A stretch of DNA of 36,340 bases, taken from the IMG/VR virus record IMGVR_UViG_3300046311_000100, positions 1-36,340 of that record; one strand, 5' to 3'. How positions within the stretch are numbered: position 1 is the stretch's first letter; every line of letters begins with the position of its first letter. Both the position numbers and the translations under genes were made by a program. The notes beneath the pieces are model-generated. The model was not told the DNA's origin. It saw nothing but the letters and a program-made list of their open reading frames with translations, and searched no databases. Positions 3,804 to 17,385 of this stretch are shown piece by piece. Origin of the DNA: a virus.

Positions 3804-4640
3804 ATGCCAGTACCGTCATTAATCACAGAGCTAACCACTACGGCGGCAACAAATTCGCCTGATGGGGATACAGAATCAGTCATTACCGCCGACAACTATT
3901 TCCGCGCTCATGCGGCGTTCATTGCGCAGTTGCGAGATGGCAAGCAGGCTGCGCTCGGCTTTACACCAGTGCAGCAAAACGGTGGCATCGGTCAGGGCAG
4001 TGTAACTGTAAAGCTGGGCCAGTCTGGAGTTACGGGTGATTCCCGCTTAGATGTTGGTGGGTCAGACCGGGGGCGAGTAGTCACCGAGCTTGGCAACAGC
4101 ATGGCTCCGTGGAGTATTACGGCTGCGGACGCGACAACGGCAACAACTTTAAACACCTTTGTTCGAAATGGTCTTACGCCCGTTGGCAACATTATTGATA
4201 TGCGAGCAACGGGTGGCGCTGGCGTTGACGTTAGGCTACAAACAACTGCAACTAGCAATACCAATTTAACGGGTACTTTTCAAATACTTGCCGCCTCTAC
4301 CAATACATACGACGCCACTGGGTACACTTGTTCTGGAAACATTACGGCCAATTCTGACGAACGTTTAAAAACAAACTGGACTTCGCTAGACGCTGACTTT
4401 TTAGATAATCTTGCTAAAATTAAGCACGGCAATTACACCCGCATTGATAGCGGCATGAGTCAGACCGGCGTGTCAGCGCAGGAATTGCAACGCGTACTGC
4501 CAAATGCAGTAGTAACTGGGGGTGATAAAAATAAAACACTGTCTGTAGCTTACGGCAATGCTGCGTTGGTGGCCTGCATACAACTTGCAAGGCGGGTTGT
4601 CAGTCTAGAGGCGAGGCTGTCGAAGTTGGAGGCGGCATGA
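3804..4640 (+). CDS. tail fibre/spike with C-terminal S74 autoprocessing chaperone
   Basis: A 278-residue protein. The C-terminal ~95 residues carry the peptidase S74 / intramolecular chaperone signature: Ser184 in NSDERLKT with Lys189 as the expected catalytic dyad, then a conserved GVSAQELQRVLP block and a terminal helical segment ending ARLSKLEAA. In this family the domain trimerises the fibre and then cuts itself off at the Ser. The N-terminal 170 residues are Thr/Asn/Gly-rich, as in beta-structured fibre shafts. The stop overlaps the next start. It is short for a receptor-binding fibre, so it may be a secondary fibre beside the larger tailspike. Confidence 0.85.
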   Translation: MPVPSLITELTTTAATNSPDGDTESVITADNYFRAHAAFIAQLRDGKQAALGFTPVQQNGGIGQGSVTVKLGQSGVTGDSRLDVGGSDRGRVVTELGNSMAPWSITAADATTATTLNTFVRNGLTPVGNIIDMRATGGAGVDVRLQTTATSNTNLTGTFQILAASTNTYDATGYTCSGNITANSDERLKTNWTSLDADFLDNLAKIKHGNYTRIDSGMSQTGVSAQELQRVLPNAVVTGGDKNKTLSVAYGNAALVACIQLARRVVSLEARLSKLEAA

Positions 4641-5122
4641 CACTTCCAGCGTCCGGTGCAATTAGTTTTAATAACGTGGCTACTGAGCTTGGTATTGGCC
4701 AGTCTGGCTTTAGCATTAGCTCGCCAATAGCCAGAGACTTGGCTGGAATACCAACTGGCGTTATTAGACTAAGTAATTTTTACGGAAAAACTAGGCGCTC
4801 AATGACCGCTGGTCGAGCGCAAATAATTAATGATGAATATATAGGTTACGAAACCGGAGGAGCTAATATTGGTAGCATTAATAATGTAAATTTTATTGGT
4901 AGAACAATAATAGCCCTGTACAATCACGTAAATCTTGCCTCTATAATTATGGTCTTGTCTGGAACTGGAAGCTCTAATGCGTTTCCTAAATTAGTAATAG
5001 ATGGGAAAACATATCTTACATCAGCTGCAACTTTCTACGCAGATGCCACTTATAGTGCTTGGCAGTGGCCAGCTCAAAGCACATTTGTAAATAGCCAAAA
5101 TTACACAATTGGACTTTTTTAA
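4637..5122 (+). CDS. small phage tail protein
   Basis: A 161-residue protein starting on an ATGA overlap with the S74 fibre. The N-terminus, LPASGAISFNNVATELG, is a recurring opening in phage tail proteins, and a second typical element about 30 residues later ends in LSNFYGKTR. The rest is predicted beta-rich and Asn/Ser/Thr-rich with no catalytic motif. Its placement between two receptor-binding candidates suggests a fibre accessory or tip protein. The family resemblance is from memory of the N-terminal motif; the function is inferred. Confidence 0.65.
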   Translation: MTLPASGAISFNNVATELGIGQSGFSISSPIARDLAGIPTGVIRLSNFYGKTRRSMTAGRAQIINDEYIGYETGGANIGSINNVNFIGRTIIALYNHVNLASIIMVLSGTGSSNAFPKLVIDGKTYLTSAATFYADATYSAWQWPAQSTFVNSQNYTIGLF

Positions 5123-5173
5123 CACATAAGCCAGCTTTAAATTATTAGTTTATATTGAAATGGAATTTGATAA

Positions 5174-6547
5174 ATGAATATGAAATTAGTAAACAGCATT
5201 GCGGCGTTGCGGCTGCTACCTACAACAGATTCCAAGTGCGCGCTTGTAACCGGCTACTACGCGGCGTTGGATGGCGGCGGCGGGCCGTACTGTTATGACG
5301 CTGCTGACACTACCACCCCTGACAACGGTGGGACAGTCATCGTCGCAGCCGGCGGCGCGCGATGGAAGTTGCTTCAGAAAAAAGGGATCGACTGGCGTCA
5401 GTTCGGCGCCAAAGGCGACGGAGTTGCTGATGACACCGTTGCCATTCAGTCAGCACTAAACGCTTCAATCAGCATGGCCGTTTCGGCTGGGACTTACCTC
5501 ATCTCCCAAACACTGTACATCCAACGATCTGATGTCAGCGTCATGGGGGCAGGTAAAGGCGGATTCCATGATCTCGTAGCGCAGGAGGGCGCAAGCACGC
5601 TGACGTGGGTCGGTGCTGTTGGTGGTGTGATGGTAGACATATCGCCAGTGTCGGTGGCCGCTAACCGCGCATTGAGGAATAACGTGTTCTCAAATTTTCG
5701 CTTTAACGCAAACGCCGGATGTGCTATTGGCCTCGTAGTTAAGTCGGCCTCACACGGAGAATTTAATAACTTCTTTGAAGAATTCAATTACGCCGGGATG
5801 TACATGGGCGTTGTTACCACCCTGGGTGAGGCGCGTGACCCTCAATTCAATAAAGTCTGTGTGTCTGGTAGGCAGCTGGTTAAAGCGGGCAGTATTCTCA
5901 CCCTGGACGGGGATGTTGGTGCCAACGCTTCGCTTAACAGTTTTGAGCTCATAGACGGCCAATATTCCACTGGGCCTGGCGTGGAGCTTATCAACGCCGA
6001 CAACAACGTGTTTAACGTGGTGCGGCTGACGCGCGGTGCGGGTAGTGCCAATGGCCTCCGCCTTTACGCGGGCGTGGTTTCGGAGCGCACCGCTCGCGGC
6101 AACTTGTTTCTAGACTTATCACCCGGCCCTGGTGGTGTGTACTCAATGGGGACGGAGGTAGCAGTTGTCCCCGCAAAGAACAACACTATAATTTTTTATG
6201 ACAAGGAAAACGGCTGGCCTGATCCCGTAATCGGTACAGGATCGAACTTGGTTTGGTCTAGTAATAGCCAGCCGCTTGGCTACAGAGAGTTTACAAAGAC
6301 CGCGACAACGACAAGTGTAATTGACTCAAACGGTTGGATCAAGAAGTCAGGCGTTACAGGCACGATTGCGGCCAATTCATCAGGGGTGATTACGTTCCCC
6401 ACCGCTTTCCCGAGCGCTTGCGTAAATTTCCGCGCTACGCCAACGACTACGCCGGGTCCTTACGCGGTCGCGGCGAATACATCTACCATAACCATCTTGA
6501 CCGGGGCGGCTGCAAATGCGTTCCGCTGGGAAGCTGAAGGCTTCTAA
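5174..6547 (+). CDS. tailspike with pectate-lyase-like beta-helix
   Basis: A 457-residue protein. The N-terminal ~65 residues look like a particle-binding domain. At about residues 75-95 is the hallmark FGAKGDGVADDTVAIQSAL that opens the pectate-lyase superfamily right-handed beta-helix of phage tailspikes. Asn/Gly/Val-rich coils follow to about residue 370, then a small beta-rich C-terminal domain. Such proteins bind and often cleave surface polysaccharide. No catalytic Asp/Glu pair can be assigned by eye. It is the last gene before the lysis cassette. Its higher GC and codon use differ from the AT-rich gene just upstream, consistent with module exchange. Confidence 0.85.
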   Translation: MNMKLVNSIAALRLLPTTDSKCALVTGYYAALDGGGGPYCYDAADTTTPDNGGTVIVAAGGARWKLLQKKGIDWRQFGAKGDGVADDTVAIQSALNASISMAVSAGTYLISQTLYIQRSDVSVMGAGKGGFHDLVAQEGASTLTWVGAVGGVMVDISPVSVAANRALRNNVFSNFRFNANAGCAIGLVVKSASHGEFNNFFEEFNYAGMYMGVVTTLGEARDPQFNKVCVSGRQLVKAGSILTLDGDVGANASLNSFELIDGQYSTGPGVELINADNNVFNVVRLTRGAGSANGLRLYAGVVSERTARGNLFLDLSPGPGGVYSMGTEVAVVPAKNNTIIFYDKENGWPDPVIGTGSNLVWSSNSQPLGYREFTKTATTTSVIDSNGWIKKSGVTGTIAANSSGVITFPTAFPSACVNFRATPTTTPGPYAVAANTSTITILTGAAANAFRWEAEGF

Positions 6548-9494: not shown

Positions 9495-9835
9495 ATTGCG
9501 TCCTTTGTGTTGGATAGATCTGCACGGGCATTTTTAATGGCGATGTCTATAGCCTGGTCGTATTCTTCTCCTGAGCCGTTTTCATGCCCAGCCCAAGAAG
9601 GGGCATCGAATCCGTCGTTTGCTTTGTCTAGCGCTGCTAGCAGGCCATTTGTAGCGGCCCATACCGCCTCAAGCTCAGAGCGCAGTGATTCGACTGTCGC
9701 GTCGTTTTCTTGCAGGAGCTGGCCTAACTTACCGGTCAAGTCATGCACCGCCGCGCTGCGCTCGGTGGCGGTTTGGCTTTGTGCGTAATCAGCACGCGCC
9801 GCTTCAATCGCTAGCCGTGTTGGTGATTTAGTCAT
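9491..9835 (-). CDS. hypothetical early protein, acidic and helical
   Basis: A 114-residue protein translated from an ATGA overlap with the Gp157-like gene. It is Ala/Asp/Glu-rich and probably all helical: a first helix (TRLAIEAARADYAQSQ), a probable coiled coil (HDLTGKLGQLLQENDATVES), then a Gly/Ser-containing loop (HENGSGEEYDQ) and a last helix. No known domain is recognised. It sits downstream of ERF, SSB and the Gp157-like gene, so it probably belongs to the early recombination/replication set, but that is only context. Confidence 0.65.
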   Translation of the reverse strand: MTKSPTRLAIEAARADYAQSQTATERSAAVHDLTGKLGQLLQENDATVESLRSELEAVWAATNGLLAALDKANDGFDAPSWAGHENGSGEEYDQAIDIAIKNARADLSNTKDAI

Positions 9836-10341
9836 TTGATTACCAGCCGTTGCGATTGGGTAAGCTTGCAGCCTGGTACATCTGTTCCGGCCTGCAATGC
9901 AGCTTTGATCGCTGCTTTGTCAGGCGCCGGCAAGGGCGGCTTAGGTTCTGGCGTGCGGATGTAGCTAGCTGGCAAACTGAGCTGGTCAAACACTTCCACG
10001 GCTACCGGGTTGTTTTGAATGCTGATAGCAAACAGTGGACACTCAATCTTTGTAATGCCAGTGCGCTGCATGTTGTCCAGTAGATATTTGCGAACACCAG
10101 CAGCAACAGCAGCGCGGCGTGCCTTTAGGCTTGTCAAACGGGCTATCTCTGCGTCAATTGCGCCATCATGGGCGGTTGCTCCGCGTGCGACAAATTCAAG
10201 CGCCTGCGCCCTGTCTTTGAATTCGTCAACAATGCCTGACGCTTCAATGGTGTCTTCAATCGTGGCCGTGTCTAGGTCTAGCTCGGAAAGTCGCCCCGCC
10301 AATTCCAAGTATTGATTCGACAAAACAAATAAATTGTTCAT
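9832..10341 (-). CDS. Gp157-like protein (siphovirus Gp157 family)
   Basis: A 169-residue protein with the expected pattern of the phage Gp157 family: a helical N-terminal half, a long helix with IARLTSLKARRAAVAAGVRK, then a short beta part TKIECPLFAISIQNNP and a Pro-rich stretch TPEPKPPLPAPDKAAIKAAL before a terminal GCKLTQSQRLVIK. The family recurs beside SSB and annealing genes in phage recombination modules; its molecular function is not settled. The ATG at 10339-10341 overlaps the native stop of the HNH relic above it. Family assignment is by eye from the Pro-rich C-terminal motif. Confidence 0.75.
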   Translation of the reverse strand: MNNLFVLSNQYLELAGRLSELDLDTATIEDTIEASGIVDEFKDRAQALEFVARGATAHDGAIDAEIARLTSLKARRAAVAAGVRKYLLDNMQRTGITKIECPLFAISIQNNPVAVEVFDQLSLPASYIRTPEPKPPLPAPDKAAIKAALQAGTDVPGCKLTQSQRLVIK

Positions 10342-10611: not shown

Positions 10612-11010
10612 CTACCAAGGCACGTCTTCGCCCATATCGTCAAAGCCTGACGCCGGCTTTGATGCCGCTGCTTTTGGCGCGTCTGGTCTTGCTGCTGGCG
10701 CTTCTCCTTGCGGCTTGCCTTGCAGTGCAACCTCGCTCACTCGAACCTCTAGCGACTTGCGTTTACCGCCGCCCTTATCCACCCATTCCCGTTCTGATAC
10801 GGCGCCAATAACGGTCACTTGCTGGCCTTTAATCAAGTACTGCTGAAGCGATGCGGCGCGTTTACCCCATAGCTGACAACCCCACCAGACAGTTGGCTTG
10901 TCGCGGCCCTGGCCATCAGCCACGCTAAAAGATAAAACCTGTTCGCCGGATGGAATGCTGCGCAGCTCGGAATCCTTGCCCAAAGCGCCGCAAATTGTGA
11001 TGTTGTTCAT
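10612..11010 (-). CDS. ssb: single-stranded DNA-binding protein
   Basis: A 132-residue protein with an OB-fold domain at 1-100: start NNITICGALGKDSELR, core VLSFSVADG, and the WGKRAASLQQYLIKGQQVTV block typical of bacterial and phage SSB. A Pro/Ala-rich linker leads to an acidic tail ending GFDDMGEDVPW, which keeps the idea of the SSB C-terminal tip that recruits partner proteins, although with Trp instead of Phe at the end. It coats ssDNA during replication and supplies substrate for the annealing protein encoded just upstream. It starts on an ATGA overlap with the ERF gene. Confidence 0.92.
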   Translation of the reverse strand: MNNITICGALGKDSELRSIPSGEQVLSFSVADGQGRDKPTVWWGCQLWGKRAASLQQYLIKGQQVTVIGAVSEREWVDKGGGKRKSLEVRVSEVALQGKPQGEAPAARPDAPKAAASKPASGFDDMGEDVPW

Positions 11011-11609
11011 TTGGCTTCCTTTTTCTTTTTCAGTTGTTTAATGATTGGTTCGTAAGCTGTTGCTGGCACTTGTGTTAATTCTTTGCAATCTGTGCCTACC
11101 GCCTTGCTAACCCAATTCATCAGGGCTTCAAAATTAGCACCTACTTCATTAGCCATAGCCGTAATATTAGCACATTGCGCAGCGTTTAAAAGCAGTAGCG
11201 GCGGCTGCTCCGCAGCGTTTAAAAGCAGTAGCGGCGGCTGCCCCGCAGCGTTACCATCGTCGTCTTCTGGCGCAATGCCGCAAGCCGTCATCAAGCTGTA
11301 GCGGCGTGCATAAGTAAGCGCAGAGCCGTAACCCTGTGGGTCTTGCTTGCTGGCAGGTACATGAAACTTACCGCAGCGCAGCACTTCACCTGACTCGTGT
11401 AAAAACACCGTTTCAATCGTCACGCCGCCAGGGTCTTCAAATGTCTCCTGATAGAGAATGATTCCAGCGTCTAGGCATGGCTTGTCAACCGCATTAAGGC
11501 ATGAGCCAAGATCGGCATATTTGCTTTTAAAGGCGGGGTTTGTTTTTTCTTTGAGCGCAGGCCCAAATGTTTTTTTTGCGCATAGCAGCGCGGCGGCTAT
11601 TTGTTTCAT
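11007..11609 (-). CDS. erf: ERF-family single-strand annealing recombinase
   Basis: A 200-residue protein with ERF superfamily landmarks: N-terminal KTNPAFKSKYADLGSCLNAV and the core GYGSALTYARRYSLMTACGI at about 94-112, followed by an acidic EDDDGN. ERF proteins anneal complementary ssDNA and circularise or recombine phage DNA. After the core there is an 11-residue duplication (121-131 and 132-142) with PPLLLLN in each copy, encoded by a 33-bp DNA repeat; this lies in the linker, not the catalytic core. The C-terminal 55 residues are helical and Lys-rich. The SSB gene follows with a 4-base overlap. An RBS is not strong before ATG 11609. Confidence 0.88.
   Translation of the reverse strand: MKQIAAALLCAKKTFGPALKEKTNPAFKSKYADLGSCLNAVDKPCLDAGIILYQETFEDPGGVTIETVFLHESGEVLRCGKFHVPASKQDPQGYGSALTYARRYSLMTACGIAPEDDDGNAAGQPPLLLLNAAEQPPLLLLNAAQCANITAMANEVGANFEALMNWVSKAVGTDCKELTQVPATAYEPIIKQLKKKKEAK
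11179..11252 (-). repeat. 33-bp tandem duplication inside the ERF gene
   Basis: Two adjacent 33-bp units (11179-11211 and 11212-11244) differ at one base, followed by the first 8 bases of a third. Being a multiple of three, the repeat keeps the frame and adds 11 residues with the Leu-rich PPLLLLN. The near identity suggests a recent event. Confidence 0.9.
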
Positions 11610-12203: not shown

Positions 12204-12403
12204 TCTTCACCTTTGGTGGTTTTTTTAATTACTGATCGCGCTTTTTTGTAATCTTTTGGGGCTACTGATTCACTAACCAATGTCTTCAAAATTTCCAGAA
12301 ATTCATCACGCTGCACTTTGTAAAAATGAACATCGCAAAGTTTTTCGGCTGGATCAATCTTTACTGCAAAGCTGCCACAATATTTTTCTTCGCATTGTTT
12401 CAT
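12200..12403 (-). CDS. hypothetical small early protein with N-terminal Cys/His pairs
   Basis: A 67-residue, charged protein. Cys4, Cys9, Cys23 and His26 (MKQCEEKYCGSF; KLCDVHFYK) could form a small zinc site; the rest is a Lys/Glu-rich helix. No family recognised. It starts on an ATGA overlap with the preceding gene and ends on one with the next. Nothing in it points to a specific activity. Confidence 0.6.
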   Translation of the reverse strand: MKQCEEKYCGSFAVKIDPAEKLCDVHFYKVQRDEFLEILKTLVSESVAPKDYKKARSVIKKTTKGEE

Positions 12404-12618
12404 GCTTCTCTCCTATACATTTCACGAGCCGCCCAGTCAGCTTCTTCTTTAGCTGCTTTTTCGTTTTTATAAGCGTCATAAACAACGTCGCGCATTTCTT
12501 CGAAGTTTGTTTGAATGTAGTAATAAAGTGGGTCATCGCAGTAATGCGCATGCCAACCATCTAAAGTTGTCATCATTTCCTGTGGGCTTGGTTTTGGGGC
12601 AATAATGGTGTTACTCAT
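12400..12618 (-). CDS. hypothetical small early protein
   Basis: A 72-residue acidic, helical protein: Pro-rich start SNTIIAPKPSPQEMM, an aromatic block HYCDDPLYYYIQ, then a Lys/Glu/Ala helix KNEKAAKEEADWAAREMYRR. It starts by ATGA overlap right after the last of the four repeat-protein genes, and its first residues (MSNT) equal theirs, which suggests the 5' end may derive from the same duplicated start. No domain recognised. Confidence 0.6.
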   Translation of the reverse strand: MSNTIIAPKPSPQEMMTTLDGWHAHYCDDPLYYYIQTNFEEMRDVVYDAYKNEKAAKEEADWAAREMYRREA

Positions 12619-13295
12619 TGTGAGACCTCTATGGGTTGACCTTTGTCATCAAGTTGATACCATTTATTTGCTTCAATCCCGTTTTCTCCAACTTTTGAAG
12701 CAAATATTGAAACAATCATTCCGATGTTGCGCCTGCCACCGACCAATACAATTGCACCGCCTTCACCGGCCCTAGCGTTGGAGCCCAGGCCAATGGCGAC
12801 AGCAACTGACCCAGTGCCGGCTGTAGAGGCGTTTGCATACATGCCAACGGCGGCTGCATTTGTGTAGTTGCCATAGGTGGTGGCGGTTGCACGCCAGCCA
12901 GCGGTAGCTGCATTTGCGTAGTCACCGGTGGTGGTGGCATTTGACTTATACCCGGCGGTAGCTGCATTTGTATACGTGCCAGCGGTGGTGGCGTCCGCAT
13001 GGTCACCGGCGGCGGCGGCATGTGACGAGCGTCCAACCGTGATAGCGGTTGCACGCCAGCCAGCGGTGGCTGCATTTGCGTAGTCACCGGTAGTGGTGGC
13101 ATTTGCATACGTGCCAGCGGTAGCTGCATTTGCATAGTAGCCGGTGGTGGTGGCATTTGACTTATGCCCGGCGGTAGCTGCATTTGCGTAGTCACCGGTG
13201 GTGGTGGCATTTGACTTATACCCGGCGGTAGCTGCATTTGTATACGTGCCAGCGGTAGCTGCATTTTCACAGTTGTAAGTGGTTGTGTTACTCAT
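12615..13295 (-). CDS. 9-residue-repeat protein, copy 4 of 4 (17 units)
   Basis: A 226-residue protein: an 11-residue lead (MSNTTTYNCEN), 17 consecutive 9-residue units of consensus A-[NAT]-[TA]-[TA]-x-G-x-x-[AS]-N, and a 62-residue tail starting AVAIGLGSNARAGEGGAIV and ending NKWYQLDDKGQPIEVSQ. The units carry strict Gly plus small or Thr residues, a composition typical of beta-solenoids such as trimeric-autotransporter heads. The tail block GSVAxAxG-x-x-S-xAxAGEGGAIVLV looks like a cap. I recall similar repeat-plus-tail phage proteins of unknown function from other hosts. The tail differs from copies 2 and 3 around GGRRNIGMIV and agrees there with copy 1. Function is unknown; a secreted or structural role is not supported by any signal peptide. 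Confidence 0.75.
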   Translation of the reverse strand: MSNTTTYNCENAATAGTYTNAATAGYKSNATTTGDYANAATAGHKSNATTTGYYANAATAGTYANATTTGDYANAATAGWRATAITVGRSSHAAAAGDHADATTAGTYTNAATAGYKSNATTTGDYANAATAGWRATATTYGNYTNAAAVGMYANASTAGTGSVAVAIGLGSNARAGEGGAIVLVGGRRNIGMIVSIFASKVGENGIEANKWYQLDDKGQPIEVSQ

Positions 13296-14077
13296 TCTAA
13301 TACCTTTATAGGTTGACCTTCGTTATTAAGTCGATACCACTTATTGGCTTCAATGCCGTTTTCTCCAACTTTTGAGGCAAATATTGAGAGAGTATTGCCA
13401 TAAACATCGCGGCCAACCAAAACAATTGCACCTCCTTCACCGGCCTTTGCTCGGGAGCCCAGACCAAGTGCGGCGGCAACTGAGCAAGTTCCAGAAGTAG
13501 AGGCATTTGCATACGTGCCAGCGGTAACTGCATTTGTGTAGTTGCCATAAGTGATAGCATTTGCATACATGCCAGCGGTAACTGCATTTGTGTAGTTGCC
13601 ATAAGTGATAGCATTTGCATACGTGCCAGCGGTGGCTGCATTTGCATGGTCACCGGCAGTGGTGGCATTTGCACAATTTCCAGCGGCGGCGGCATGTGAC
13701 CAGCGTCCAACCGTGATAGCAGTTGCACGCCAGCCAGCGGTAGTTGCATTTTCATTGTCACCGGTAGTGGTGGCATTTGCATACGTGCCAGCGGTAGTTG
13801 CATTTTCATTGTCACCGGTAGTGGTGGCATTTGCATACGCGCCAGCGGTAGCTGCATTTGCGTAGTTGCCATAGGTGGTGGCATTTGCATACGTGCCAGC
13901 GGTGGCTGCATTTGCATGGTCACCGGCAGTGGTGGCATTTGCACAATTTCCAGTAGTAGTAGCATTTGAATAATCACCAGCGGTAGTGGCATTTTCATTG
14001 TCACCGGTAGTGGTGGCGTTTGCATACGTGCCAGCGATGACGTCATTCTCACAGTTGTAAGTGGTTGTGTTACTCAT
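13292..14077 (-). CDS. 9-residue-repeat protein, copy 3 of 4 (21 units)
   Basis: A 261-residue protein and the longest copy: the same 11-residue lead as copy 4, 21 nine-residue units, and a 61-residue tail (AAALGLGSRAKAGEGGAIVL, ending NKWYRLNNEGQPIKVLE). Units such as AATAGTYAN, ATTTGDNEN and AITYGNYTN recur inside it, some as adjacent pairs, so unit pairs have duplicated locally (for example ATTAGTYAN-ATTTGDNEN and AITYGNYTN-AVTAG). Overlaps both neighbours by ATGA. No signal peptide, membrane helix or catalytic motif is seen. The Thr/Asn/Gly-rich solenoid-like sequence suggests an extended beta-structure; the function is unknown. Confidence 0.75.
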   Translation of the reverse strand: MSNTTTYNCENDVIAGTYANATTTGDNENATTAGDYSNATTTGNCANATTAGDHANAATAGTYANATTYGNYANAATAGAYANATTTGDNENATTAGTYANATTTGDNENATTAGWRATAITVGRWSHAAAAGNCANATTAGDHANAATAGTYANAITYGNYTNAVTAGMYANAITYGNYTNAVTAGTYANASTSGTCSVAAALGLGSRAKAGEGGAIVLVGRDVYGNTLSIFASKVGENGIEANKWYRLNNEGQPIKVLE

Positions 14078-14643
14078 TCTGAGACCTCTATAGGTTGACC
14101 TTCGTTATTAAGTCGATACCACTTATTGGCTTCAATGCCGTTTTCTCCAACTTTTGAGGAAAAGATTGAAAGAATATTGCCACCCACATCGCGGCCAACC
14201 AAAACAATTGCACCGCCTTCGCCCGCCCTAGCTTTGGAGACCGGGCCAAGTGCGGCGGCAACTGACCCAACGCCAGTCGTTGCGGCATTTGCACTCCAGC
14301 CAGTGGCGAGGGCATTTGCATACGCGCCAGCGGTGGCGGCTTTTGCATACGTGCCAGCGGCGAAGGCATTTGACCCGCTCCCAACCGTGGTGGCTTTTGG
14401 CCTATCCCCAGCGGCGGCGGCGTTTGCATCGTCGCCAGTCGTTGCGGCATTAGCATACGTGCCAGCGGCGAAGGCATTTGACCCGCTCCCAACCGTGGTG
14501 GCATTTGCACTCCAGCCAGCGGCGAAGGCATTTGACTCGCGCCCAACCGTGATGGTATTTGCACGCCGGCCTGTGGTTGCGGAATTTTCACCGCGCCCAA
14601 CCGTGGTGGTATTTGCGTGCGTGCCAGTCGTGGTGTTACTCAT
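14074..14643 (-). CDS. 9-residue-repeat protein, copy 2 of 4 (13 units)
   Basis: A 189-residue protein: an 11-residue lead (MSNTTTGTHAN), 13 nine-residue units and a 61-residue tail with GPVSKARAGEGGAIVLVGRD. The units are more divergent in type than in the other copies, with GSGSN-AFAAG and TTTVGRGEN forms that are closer to the GxxSxAxG repeats of autotransporter heads. The unit ATTVGSGSN followed by AFAAGTYA occurs twice. The junction with copy 3 is nearly identical in DNA to the junction between copies 3 and 4, evidence of tandem gene duplication. Function unknown. Confidence 0.75.
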   Translation of the reverse strand: MSNTTTGTHANTTTVGRGENSATTGRRANTITVGRESNAFAAGWSANATTVGSGSNAFAAGTYANAATTGDDANAAAAGDRPKATTVGSGSNAFAAGTYAKAATAGAYANALATGWSANAATTGVGSVAAALGPVSKARAGEGGAIVLVGRDVGGNILSIFSSKVGENGIEANKWYRLNNEGQPIEVSE

Positions 14644-15161
14644 TCTAATACCTCTATAGGTTTACATTCGTCATTAAGCCGATACCATTTATCAGCCTCA
14701 ATCCCGTTTTCTCCAACTTTTGAGGCAAATATTGAAACAATTATTCCGGCGTTGCGCCTGCGACCGACCAATACAATTGCGCCACTTTTACCCGCTTTTG
14801 CTTTAGAGCCCCAACCCAGCGCCGCAGCAACTGATTCAATTCCAGCGGTGGAGGCATCTGAACAATTTCCAGTAGTAGTAGCGTTTGAATAATCACCGGC
14901 AGTGGTGGCATTTGCACAATTTCCAGCGGTGGCGGCGTCCGCATAGTCACCGCTGGTTGTGGCATTTGCCTGATGCCCGGCGGTGGTGGCATTTGCCTGA
15001 TACCCGGCGGTGGTGGCATTTGCCTTATACCCAGCGGTAGCTGCATTTGCGTAGTTGCCATAGGTGGTTGCGTTTGACTTGGAGCGAGAGCTGGCGATAC
15101 TTACAGAGTCGGCAGTGCTTACGACAGTTTCTTTGTCGCGGGAAATGATGGCGTCACTCAT
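14640..15161 (-). CDS. 9-residue-repeat protein, copy 1 of 4 (9 units, distinct N-terminus)
   Basis: A 173-residue protein. Unlike the other copies it starts with a 30-residue unrelated charged/Ser-rich segment (MSDAIISRDKETVVSTADSV), then 9 units (for example ATTAGYQAN, ATTAGHQAN) and a 62-residue tail with GWGSKAKAGKSGAIVLVGRR ending in DECKPIEVLE. It is the first repeat gene in the operon and may represent the parental form, the later copies having lost or replaced the N-terminus. It follows the 52-residue gene with only 2 bases between the stop and its ATG. Function unknown. Confidence 0.75.
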   Translation of the reverse strand: MSDAIISRDKETVVSTADSVSIASSRSKSNATTYGNYANAATAGYKANATTAGYQANATTAGHQANATTSGDYADAATAGNCANATTAGDYSNATTTGNCSDASTAGIESVAAALGWGSKAKAGKSGAIVLVGRRRNAGIIVSIFASKVGENGIEADKWYRLNDECKPIEVLE

Positions 15162-15163
15162 GA

Positions 15164-15322
15164 TTAAGCGCCCACAGATTTATACGACTGCTTAGCAATA
15201 TTTGTCCACTGCTGGGCGCGCAATTGGCGCTTTTGTTGCAAGTCTTTAGTCAGCTTGGCTTGGGCTTGCTTTATAGCTTTCTGGGCTGCTGCGTTCAAAA
15301 AGTAGGCCGGTACTGTCTTCAT
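15164..15322 (-). CDS. 52-residue basic helical protein, first gene of the leftward operon
   Basis: Fifty-two codons starting MKTVPAYFLNAAAQKAIKQA, followed by a Lys/Gln-rich helix (KLTKDLQQKRQLRAQQWTN) and a short tail. The start has a strong ribosome binding site, AAAGGAG, 6 bases before ATG. It is the first gene after the leftward promoter. Basic, helical and single-domain, it might bind nucleic acid, but no family is recognised. An early regulatory or host-take-over function would fit its position; this is inference. Confidence 0.7.
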   Translation of the reverse strand: MKTVPAYFLNAAAQKAIKQAQAKLTKDLQQKRQLRAQQWTNIAKQSYKSVGA

Positions 15323-15458: not shown

Positions 15459-15487
15459 AGTATATCGCCATTTTTGGCGTTTGTCAA
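15459..15487 (-). promoter_or_regulatory. strong sigma-70 leftward early promoter
   Basis: On the minus strand TTGACA (15482-15487) and TATACT (15459-15464) are separated by exactly 17 bases, an almost consensus sigma-70 promoter. It faces the 52-residue gene and the repeat cassette. The spacer holds the dyad described as the left operator, and a second dyad GTTTGTC/GACAAAC (15479-15485 and 15501-15507) covers the -35. Confidence 0.85.
15466..15479. promoter_or_regulatory. operator-like dyad in the leftward promoter spacer
   Basis: A 14-bp dyad, CGCCA-tttt-TGGCG on plus (CGCCAAAAATGGCG on minus), lies exactly between the -35 and -10. A near-identical dyad is found at 15940-15953, over the rightward regulator's -10 and start codon. 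Shared sequence and placement inside two divergent promoters argue for one common repressor or Cro-type protein. Binding is inferred. Confidence 0.65.
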
Positions 15488-16603: not shown

Positions 16604-17385
16604 ATTTCTACCCGCATCACATTGGCGACTTTAACAACGCAACGCGTCACTTAACACGTGTTGAACAGAGCGTGTACAGAGGAGCAATAGAACTGTATTA
16701 CGACACCGAATCTGTTTTAACACTTGATGTTACGAGGCTAGAAAAGCGTCTTTTGTGCGTCACGGTTGAGGAAAAAGAGGCTCTAAAAACTGTTTTGGAA
16801 GAGTTTTTCACTCTTACAAACGATGGATACGAGCACGAGAGATGTTCAAAAGAGATAGCAAAGTATCAAGCAAATACAGGGGCAAAAGCCCGGGCTGGCA
16901 TTGCAAGCGCAGCAAAGCGCAAACAGAATTCAACACGTGTTGAGCGCCCGTTCAACACGTGTGCAACTAACCAAGAACCAATAACCAATAACCAAGAACC
17001 AATAACCAAAAGAAAAGGAGCTAAAGCTCCCTTGTCGGCAGACGAGCTGCCAACGTGGATGCAATCGCTGGTAGACCTTTACCACGAAACATTGCCCGAA
17101 CTACCAGCGGTTCGAGTGATGGATGTTGCTCGAAGGCAGGCTTTGATTGATTTTCGAGACTGGGTTATGGCGTCAAAAAGACCCGACGGGAAACCGCGCG
17201 CTACCTGCGCTGATGAGTTTCTGATATGGACGCGTGATTACATGAGCCGCGCTCGAAACAACGATTTCATCATGGGTCGTGGGCCAAAGTCGCAGGATCA
17301 CAAAAACTGGCGCTGCTCGATTGAGTTTTTATTGTCGAGCAAGGGTGTGAAAAAAGTAGTTGAAGAAACATTGGAAACAGCATGA
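16600..17385 (+). CDS. DUF1376 replication-initiator-like protein
   Basis: A 261-residue protein. The N-terminal 100 residues match the DUF1376 (YdaU-like) pattern: MNFYPHHIGDFNNATRHLTR, then VYRGAIELYYDTE and the FFTLTNDGYEHERC strand pair, ending in a Lys/Ala helix. This domain is found in phage replication proteins placed before a helicase or helicase loader. The low-complexity linker (residues about 105-145) contains a duplicated NQEPITN encoded by exact 21-bp repeats and is a candidate origin, as in the O gene of lambda. The C-terminal domain (TWMQSLVDLYHETLPELPAV onward, with W-RD-Y) is likely DNA binding. Followed by DnaB with a 4-base overlap. Confidence 0.8.
   Translation: MNFYPHHIGDFNNATRHLTRVEQSVYRGAIELYYDTESVLTLDVTRLEKRLLCVTVEEKEALKTVLEEFFTLTNDGYEHERCSKEIAKYQANTGAKARAGIASAAKRKQNSTRVERPFNTCATNQEPITNNQEPITKRKGAKAPLSADELPTWMQSLVDLYHETLPELPAVRVMDVARRQALIDFRDWVMASKRPDGKPRATCADEFLIWTRDYMSRARNNDFIMGRGPKSQDHKNWRCSIEFLLSSKGVKKVVEETLETA
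16930..17030 (+). other. candidate replication origin with iterons inside the DUF1376 gene
   Basis: Within 100 bases there are a perfect 14-bp palindrome TCAACACGTGTTGA (16930-16943), a half-matching copy TCAACACGTGTGCA (16952-16965), an exact 21-bp tandem repeat beginning TAACCAAGAACC at 16968-16988 and 16989-17009, and a GGAGC-taaa-GCTCC hairpin at 17017-17030. A third copy of AACACGTGTT lies at 16653-16662 near the start of the gene. Iterons, an AT-rich tract and dyads in the linker of an initiator-like gene are the hallmarks of lambdoid origins. Origin activity is inferred. Confidence 0.55.

What the first reader, a model, noticed from the sequence alone, without database searches (positions are those of the whole stretch)
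12615..15161. Four tandem paralogous genes built from 9-residue repeats with a conserved tail
Seen directly: four consecutive minus-strand genes, three of them linked by ATGA overlaps, each consist of 27-bp units and end in the same ~61-residue tail (AGEGGAIVLV ... SKVGENGIEA ... KWY-L). No signal peptide, membrane helix or enzyme motif is visible. The unit (A-N-A-T-T-x-G-x-x) resembles beta-solenoid heads of trimeric autotransporters, but the genes lie in an early operon beside recombination genes rather than with virion genes. Repeat-plus-tail proteins like this exist in other phages as hypotheticals, to my memory; a run of four with different unit numbers would be unusual. Possible roles: an oligomeric solenoid that binds a host surface, nucleic acid or defence component, or a decoy antigen-like array.
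Basis: partly seen in the sequence, partly recalled or inferred. Interest (0 to 1): 0.85.

Follow-up and report, generated by a model that had tools for sequence, protein, structure and literature searches.

The report
Four tandem phage early repeat-solenoid proteins
This virus of bacteria carries four side-by-side versions of a rod-shaped repeat protein that many phages make early in infection, usually as one copy fused to an enzyme-like head; here the head is missing and the rod has been multiplied and diversified, and what the rod binds is still unknown.

Summary
Four consecutive minus-strand genes (12615-15161), joined by three ATGA overlaps, encode 9-residue repeats plus a shared tail of about 63 residues. 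They form one clade (in-place duplication), and tail dN/dS is 0.17-0.34, so all are maintained. They are the first sizeable genes of an early operon with a near-consensus promoter, followed by Erf, SSB and a Mu-Gam-like gene.

The family is not new. The same repeats and tail occur in hundreds of phage contigs (phrog_4433 and related, function unknown) and in E. coli YdhT. They usually follow an N-terminal head: DUF7666, which a fold comparison here and a published annotation place near ADP-ribosyltransferases, or a YdhT-type head. The window copies have neither head; among their nearest tails are YdhT-headed proteins.

AlphaFold2 gives a confident beta-solenoid (pLDDT 91). Solenoid type is interchangeable: DUF7666 is fused to pentapeptide repeats in Rheinheimera phages, and a sister phage has a pentapeptide-repeat protein in the same slot.

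Best reading: early, cytoplasmic, accessory solenoid binders of a host component, with surface diversified between copies. The target is not shown. Novelty: a new variant (headless, four-fold, diversified) of a known kind.

The parts
15459..15487 (-). sigma-70-like promoter TTGACA-17-TATACT (11 of 12) reading into the operon
   Evidence: a consensus match only, but the best in the region and correctly placed
15164..15322 (-). 52-aa basic ORF (pI 10.6), first gene of the operon; in the position where ES18-like phages have N
   Evidence: (no PHROG hit); N analogy is positional only
14640..15161 (-). copy A, 173 aa: about 28 degenerate residues, 9 units, tail
   Evidence: AlphaFold2 model
14074..14643 (-). 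copy B, 189 aa, about 14 units plus tail
13292..14077 (-). copy C, 261 aa, about 22 units plus tail
12615..13295 (-). copy D, 226 aa, about 18 units plus tail
14640..14834 (-). conserved C-terminal tail (cap) of copy A
14074..14265 (-). conserved tail of copy B
13292..13483 (-). conserved tail of copy C
12615..12809 (-). conserved tail of copy D
12400..12618 (-). 72-aa ORF E; shares the ATGAGTAACAC start and the upstream sequence of copies B-D but not their body
11007..11609 (-). Erf-like ssDNA annealing protein, same operon
   Evidence: phrog_2324 E 4e-37
10612..11010 (-). single-stranded DNA-binding protein, same operon
   Evidence: 79% over 98 aa to the sister-phage ORF in the same position next to Erf; named from sequence
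9832..10341 (-). Mu Gam-like DNA-end protection protein, same strand and cluster
   Evidence: phrog_253 E 1e-35

Best explanation
The four genes encode small cytoplasmic beta-solenoids: one strand per 9-residue unit, probably two units per coil, closed at the C-terminal end by a conserved cap. They are made early from the leftward operon together with Erf, SSB and a Gam-like protein. Shown: the anatomy, purifying selection on the tails, in-place duplication, early-operon context, absence of the usual heads. Inferred: they work as stand-alone binding rods that engage a host protein or nucleic-acid machine early in infection, as pentapeptide-repeat proteins do with topoisomerases, and so protect phage DNA metabolism or blunt a host response. 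The four copies differ mainly at positions 1, 4, 6, 8 and 9 of the unit because they present different binding faces (inferred). The ancestral protein carried a head, possibly of the YdhT type, and the head was lost here (inferred).
For: Fold: pLDDT 90.9, pTM 0.86. Structural matches are beta-helices: Vag8 Z 10.3, SufB-SufC-SufD chain Z 8.6, CAP C-terminal domain Z 7.6, Qnr/AlbG/MfpA Z 4.0-4.7. Early slot: promoter and Erf/Gam in the cluster; 32 of 59 family loci have Erf/SSB/Exo/Gam downstream on the same strand and 43 of 59 have CI upstream; in Salmonella S107/S135 and Edwardsiella GF-2 phages the gene follows N directly. Slot equivalence: sister phage G002 has Erf, three small ORFs, then a 442-aa pentapeptide-repeat protein. 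Module swap: DUF7666 plus Pentapeptide_2 in Rheinheimera phage. Selection: tail dN/dS 0.17-0.34; unit columns 2, 3, 5, 7 have pN/pS 0-0.25 against 0.8-2.2 at columns 1, 4, 6, 8, 9. One clade, 96/98. Accessory: 0 of 29 terminase-related records carry it (no positive control in that set). No head in the window.
Against: No target, expression or phenotype is known for any member. Column-wise pN/pS among repeats is confounded by recombination and gives no test of positive selection. Middling VIA Z-scores show only a common arrangement. Weak tail-fibre profile hits exist for some relatives (GF-2 gp55, CP1 gp32). The published authors of fEg-Aba01 proposed instead a toxin-antitoxin role for their headed copy (PMC7354433). 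In the nearest relatives the slot holds unrelated proteins, so a shared slot does not prove a shared function.
Confidence: 0.45

Rival explanations
1. Counter-defence repertoire: each copy is an inhibitor or decoy of a different host defence or restriction component, and amplification plus divergence is the outcome of an arms race.
For: Position in the N-to-recombination interval, where lambdoid phages keep anti-host genes such as ral, kil and gam (established knowledge); patchy distribution; most variable unit columns have relaxed pN/pS; in the canonical family repeat number varies from 7 to 33 among related phages.
Against: PADLOC gives no hit, although it lists defence rather than anti-defence proteins; no linked anti-defence gene identified; no functional test.
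Confidence: 0.22
2. Scaffold or regulator remnant: the solenoid is only the stalk or multimerisation part of a headed (ADP-ribosyltransferase-like or YdhT-like) effector; headless copies act as modulators or buffers of a headed protein supplied by the host or a co-infecting prophage.
For: The same tail occurs under at least three heads; DUF7666 has an ADP-ribosyltransferase-like fold and was annotated so by others through similarity to rifampin ADP-ribosyltransferase; near relatives of the window copies carry YdhT-type heads.
Against: No head anywhere in the window; four maintained copies exceed what a remnant needs.
Confidence: 0.13
3. Virion or cell-surface adhesin (tail-fibre-like, or trimeric autotransporter head-like).
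For: The unit superficially resembles adhesin repeats; relatives give weak tail-fibre profile hits; best structural Z is to an autotransporter passenger, Vag8.
Against: Location in the early operon on the strand opposite to the virion genes; no tail profile matches the window proteins; the recognisable tail fibre genes lie at 3804-6547; period 9/18, not the 14-16 of YadA heads; no signal peptide seen in the sequence.
Confidence: 0.07
4. Selfish or neutral repeat expansion without function, kept open because 27 is a multiple of 3.
For: Other frames also stay open in the arrays; repeat slippage is evident in relatives.
Against: Tails show dN/dS 0.17-0.34 between copies; positions 2, 3, 5, 7 of the units have pN/pS 0-0.25; each copy keeps its start and ATGA coupling.
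Confidence: 0.05

Closest known systems
phrog_4433 / phrog_27197 (phage proteins of unknown function; Pfam DUF7666 head, 9-residue repeats, conserved tail; e.g. Pseudomonas phage 5399, Salmonella S107, ES18 gp53)
   Same: 9-residue repeats; tail ending SKVGENGI...WY.L (E down to 3e-24 to phrog_4433); place between the CI/N region and the recombination genes
   Different: window copies lack DUF7666; units far more heterogeneous (lag-1 identity 3.4-4.6 of 9 against a mean of 6.6); four tandem copies; 18-residue alternation absent in 87 canonical arrays
E. coli YdhT (b1669, ydhYVWXUT operon) and Edwardsiella phage GF-2 gp55
   Same: repeats and tail are homologous (NCBIfam YdhT E 9e-12; BLASTP); near neighbours of the window tails in the tree carry this head (L325, L319)
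   Different: window copies lack the W..C.G.RWFL..FP.GG head; scores are far below the NCBIfam cut-off (31-45 against 300)
Xanthomonas phage CP1 gp32 (and Xp10 43L by structure)
   Same: short members with heterogeneous units; CP1 gp32 is headless, ATGA-coupled to the next gene and shares its start sequence with it
   Different: single copy; partner gene is a YdcK-type hexapeptide solenoid; lies beside the RNA polymerase gene
Pentapeptide-repeat proteins (Qnr, MfpA, AlbG; phage PRP P0011 in sister phage G002)
   Same: small beta-solenoids; same operon slot in a close relative; the same DUF7666 head can carry either repeat
   Different: 5-residue repeat and four-sided helix; no sequence homology; VIA Z only 4.0-4.7
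Three tandem DUF7666-repeat genes in IMGVR_UViG_3300003892_000001 (L050)
   Same: tandem paralogues of this family in one phage
   Different: all three keep DUF7666; the genes neighbour a DNA-polymerase-like gene rather than Erf

Membership tests
DUF7666 (PF24703) proteins | DUF7666 domain at the N-terminus | tested here: not met
   no Pfam hit in any of the four copies; own N-terminal HMM finds nothing in six frames of the window
phrog_4433 / phrog_27197 repeat-tail family | 9-residue repeats followed by the conserved tail | tested here: met
   E 3e-17 to 3e-24 (phrog_4433) and 2e-12 to 3e-19 (phrog_27197); alignment of tails
phrog_4433 / phrog_27197 repeat-tail family | early leftward operon, CI/N side, before recombination genes | tested here: met
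   for the window; for relatives
YdhT (NF007410) | repeats and tail homologous to YdhT | tested here: met
   E 1.5e-7 to 9e-12, BLASTP 2e-8
YdhT (NF007410) | YdhT-type N-terminal head and curated score of 300 bits | tested here: not met
   31-45 bits; head HMM gives no hit in the window
Pentapeptide-repeat proteins (PF00805) | A(D/N)LXX five-residue periodicity | tested here: not met
   period is 9; no Pfam hit
Trimeric autotransporter adhesin (YadA-like head) | 14-16-residue left-handed beta-roll repeats, signal peptide, C-terminal membrane anchor | tested here: not met
   period 9/18; proteins end in the soluble tail, with no long hydrophobic segment in the sequences; signal peptide judged by eye only
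Trimeric autotransporter adhesin (YadA-like head) | trimeric assembly | not testable with these tools
   only monomers could be predicted
RTX calcium beta-roll | GGxGxDxUx nonapeptides | tested here: not met
   unit is [AS]NA[TA]TxGxx, no G-G or D at the calcium positions
Phage tail fibre / virion protein | place among virion genes or match to tail profiles | tested here: not met
   presence in virions itself not tested

The most novel reading that the evidence does not exclude
The phage keeps a diversified set of four headless solenoids as a modular binding repertoire: a common cap and core with copy-specific residues at the coil edges, so that each copy neutralises a different host factor (a defence component or DNA-transaction enzyme), with repeat recombination and gene duplication as the diversity engine.
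Probability: 0.2. Interest if true: 0.75.

Novelty: new variant of a known kind. Interest (0 to 1): 0.45.

Why it matters
The family is common in temperate phages of Proteobacteria, sits where phages keep anti-host genes, and has a chromosomal relative in E. coli K-12 (YdhT, in the ydhYVWXUT operon), yet no member with a tested function was found. The window is a natural experiment that separates the solenoid from its heads and shows that the solenoid alone is kept and multiplied. Together with the swap between nonapeptide and pentapeptide solenoids under one DUF7666 head, this makes a testable claim: the solenoid is the host-binding part and the head is an optional ADP-ribosyltransferase-like effector.

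Tried and rejected
Megablast of the window against phages: no match. PDB sequence search: nothing for P0004. The profile of the repeats hits Spt5 (8qsz, E 1e-8), judged a chance match to another nonapeptide, low-complexity repeat. NCBIfam hits to Scl2/SclB and BcsB and the Pfam Collagen hits of relatives are compositional. E. coli YdhQ, the adhesin-related neighbour of YdhT, is not a relative. Possible homology of ORF E (12400-12618) to the YdhT head was tested and not found. Foldseek against PDB gave no match at E under 0.001 for either model. No YadA head was listed in the PDB searches; absence there is not evidence. The 18-residue alternation could come from duplication of 54-bp blocks rather than from a two-sided coil; canonical arrays do not show it, so it is supportive only. 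Literature: nothing for DUF7666, ES18 gp53, Xp10 43L; YdhT is only mentioned in passing. The Gabija preprint PMC12407980 shows that early recombination-side genes of phage D3 alter defence sensitivity; no DUF7666-type protein is named in the passages read.
Full report
1. OBSERVATION. The window holds four consecutive minus-strand ORFs, A 14640-15161, B 14074-14643, C 13292-14077 and D 12615-13295. Every junction, and the junction of D with the next gene, is an ATGA overlap. Cutting the proteins backwards in nines from the tail gives 61 units with a G at position 7. Positions 2, 3 and 5 are nearly fixed (N, A, T); positions 8 and 9 are the most variable. Codon comparison of units gives pN/pS 0-0.25 at positions 2, 3, 5, 7 and about 0.8-2.2 at 1, 4, 6, 8, 9. 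Tails differ with dN/dS 0.17-0.34. All four genes are therefore maintained as proteins; these are not frames left open by a 27-bp repeat. Neighbouring units alternate: unit i resembles unit i+2 more than unit i+1 (permutation p = 2e-4). This is expected if two units make one coil, but block duplication of 54 bp would also give it; 87 arrays from relatives do not alternate (4 with p under 0.05).

2. CONTEXT. An 11-of-12 sigma-70-like promoter at 15487-15459 reads into the operon. It is followed by a 52-aa basic ORF, then A to D, three small ORFs without PHROG hits, Erf, SSB and, further on, a Mu Gam-like protein. Replication genes (O-like, DnaB) diverge on the plus strand; tail fibre genes (3804-6547), portal and major head genes lie elsewhere on the plus strand. 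'Early' is inferred from this layout; no expression data exist.

3. RELATIVES. Pfam and PADLOC have no hit. PHROGs place the proteins in phrog_4433 and phrog_27197, unknown function, and NCBIfam finds partial similarity to E. coli YdhT. Tail-based scans find 269 confirmed loci in IMG/VR and 32 in GTDB genomes, almost all Pseudomonadota. The canonical protein has three parts: head, 9-residue repeats, tail. Heads found are DUF7666, a YdhT-type head W..C.G.RWFL..FP.GG (L038, L319, L325, GF-2 gp55, YdhT) and a CGGGLH type (L335, L339). Headless members besides the window are L302 and Xanthomonas phage CP1 gp32. Neither of the two heads for which a profile was made is present anywhere in the window. 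In a tail tree the four copies form one clade (96/98), with B-C and A-D pairs; the nearest rows include YdhT-headed L325 and betaproteobacterial L117 (L098 and YdhT-headed L319 lie one fork further out) (few columns, deep forks unresolved).

4. CONSERVED POSITION AND ACCESSORY STATUS. Of 59 family loci with full flanks, 43 have a CI repressor upstream and 32 have Erf, SSB, Exo or Gam downstream on the same strand; 13 also carry an N homologue. In Salmonella S107 and S135 and Edwardsiella GF-2 the gene follows N directly. None of 29 records related to the window by terminase carries the family; that search had no positive control in the set. In the sister phage G002 the same operon reads SSB, Erf, three small ORFs, then a 442-aa pentapeptide-repeat protein; in G004 a protein with an Ala-rich repeat lies in the corresponding region.

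5. FOLD. AlphaFold2 with 30 sequences predicts copy A with pLDDT 90.9 and pTM 0.86: one strand per unit and a strand-rich cap. No PDB match reaches E 0.001 in Foldseek. VIA-align gives beta-helices: Vag8 Z 10.3 (rmsd 3.9, 152 aligned), SufB-SufC-SufD chain Z 8.6 (2.6, 136), CAP C-terminal domain Z 7.6, Qnr, AlbG and MfpA Z 4.0-4.7. Viral models find Xp10 43L (TM 0.74), CP1 gp32 and DUF7666 proteins. Two units per coil is inferred from strand spacing and these matches; handedness was not determined. A headed relative (L106, pLDDT 80) shows residues 1-100 resembling ADP-ribosyltransferase folds: BC2332 Z 7.7 (itself of unknown function), Arr Z 6.2, PARP13/14/15/16, Tpt1, TreTu at Z 4-5. The annotators of Acinetobacter phage fEg-Aba01 reached the same reading, similarity to rifampin ADP-ribosyltransferase, and proposed a toxin-antitoxin pair (PMC7354433). 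Catalytic competence was not tested.

6. MODULE SWAPPING. Rheinheimera phage Barba5S gp43 fuses DUF7666 (E 5e-21) to Pentapeptide_2 repeats (E 9e-40). CP1 gp32 (headless nonapeptide) is ATGA-coupled to gp31, a YdcK-type solenoid (PF18836), and both start MKYExLQxxTQV. In the window, copies B-D and the unrelated downstream ORF E share ATGAGTAACAC and the preceding GAGGT element, which suggests that copies and neighbour exchanged starts by recombination at the junction. These facts say that solenoid chemistry and head are interchangeable while the slot is kept.

7. MECHANISM. Shown: structure class (by prediction), early-operon layout, purifying selection, duplication in place, absence of heads. 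Inferred: the products are cytoplasmic binding rods aimed at a host component, with diversified faces. Rivals and refuting results are listed in their sections. Copies diverge at the loosely constrained columns, which favours diversification over dosage, but recombination confounds any claim of positive selection.

8. KNOWN OR NEW. The family is already catalogued without function. New here are the headless four-fold array with diversified units, the link of window copies to the YdhT-headed branch, and evidence that nonapeptide and pentapeptide solenoids replace each other. A run of three headed copies exists in L050, so tandem arrays are rare rather than unique. The only other record of this very array is a 100% identical contig (L001), so population variation could not be studied.

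Noticed in passing
L106 5527-6189; PF24703 family: DUF7666, a Pfam domain of unknown function, resembles ADP-ribosyltransferase folds (Arr, PARP, Tpt1, BC2332) in an AlphaFold2 model; its Y-K-G-F and GFHxCE..D.F.YY motifs look like ART landmarks.
   Followed up: partly
L128 10748-11560 (E. coli K-12 ydhT, b1669): YdhT, in the ydhYVWXUT operon, is 34% identical over its length to a phage PL-operon protein (Edwardsiella GF-2 gp55), so it looks like a domesticated phage early protein.
   Followed up: partly
L211 4215-5543 (-): 442-aa pentapeptide-repeat protein with its own N- and C-terminal regions in the early operon of the sister phage, in the slot of the window's four genes.
   Followed up: partly
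L342 2471-3448: Rheinheimera Barba phages carry DUF7666 fused to NTGxx pentapeptide repeats; over 100 Rheinheimera phage records were hit.
   Followed up: partly
window 9832-10341 (-): Mu Gam-like DNA-end protection protein near Erf and SSB; such proteins are reported to sensitise phages to Gabija (PMC12407980).
   Followed up: no
window 16968-17009 (+): Six copies of TAACCAA (two exact 21-bp repeats) inside the O-like replication gene; could be origin iterons, as in lambda O.
   Followed up: no
window 11178-11252: 33-bp tandem repeat (97%) inside the C-terminal half of erf, encoding repeated PPLLLLNAAEQ.
   Followed up: no
window 15164-15322 (-): 52-aa very basic ORF (pI 10.6) as first gene of the operon, where other phages have antiterminator N.
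   Followed up: partly
many viral contigs, e.g. L022, L024, L032, L039: About 40 of 100 contigs with this gene end inside the repeat array, so short-read assemblies often break here and the family is probably under-reported.
   Followed up: no
L212 5144-5815 (-): The corresponding early region of another relative (G004) holds a protein with an Ala/Gly/Asp-rich, probably helical repeat, again a repeat protein.
   Followed up: no
window 3804-4637 (+): Tail fibre protein whose C-terminal part looks like an S74-type self-cleaving chaperone (SDERLKTNW...), read from sequence.
   Followed up: no
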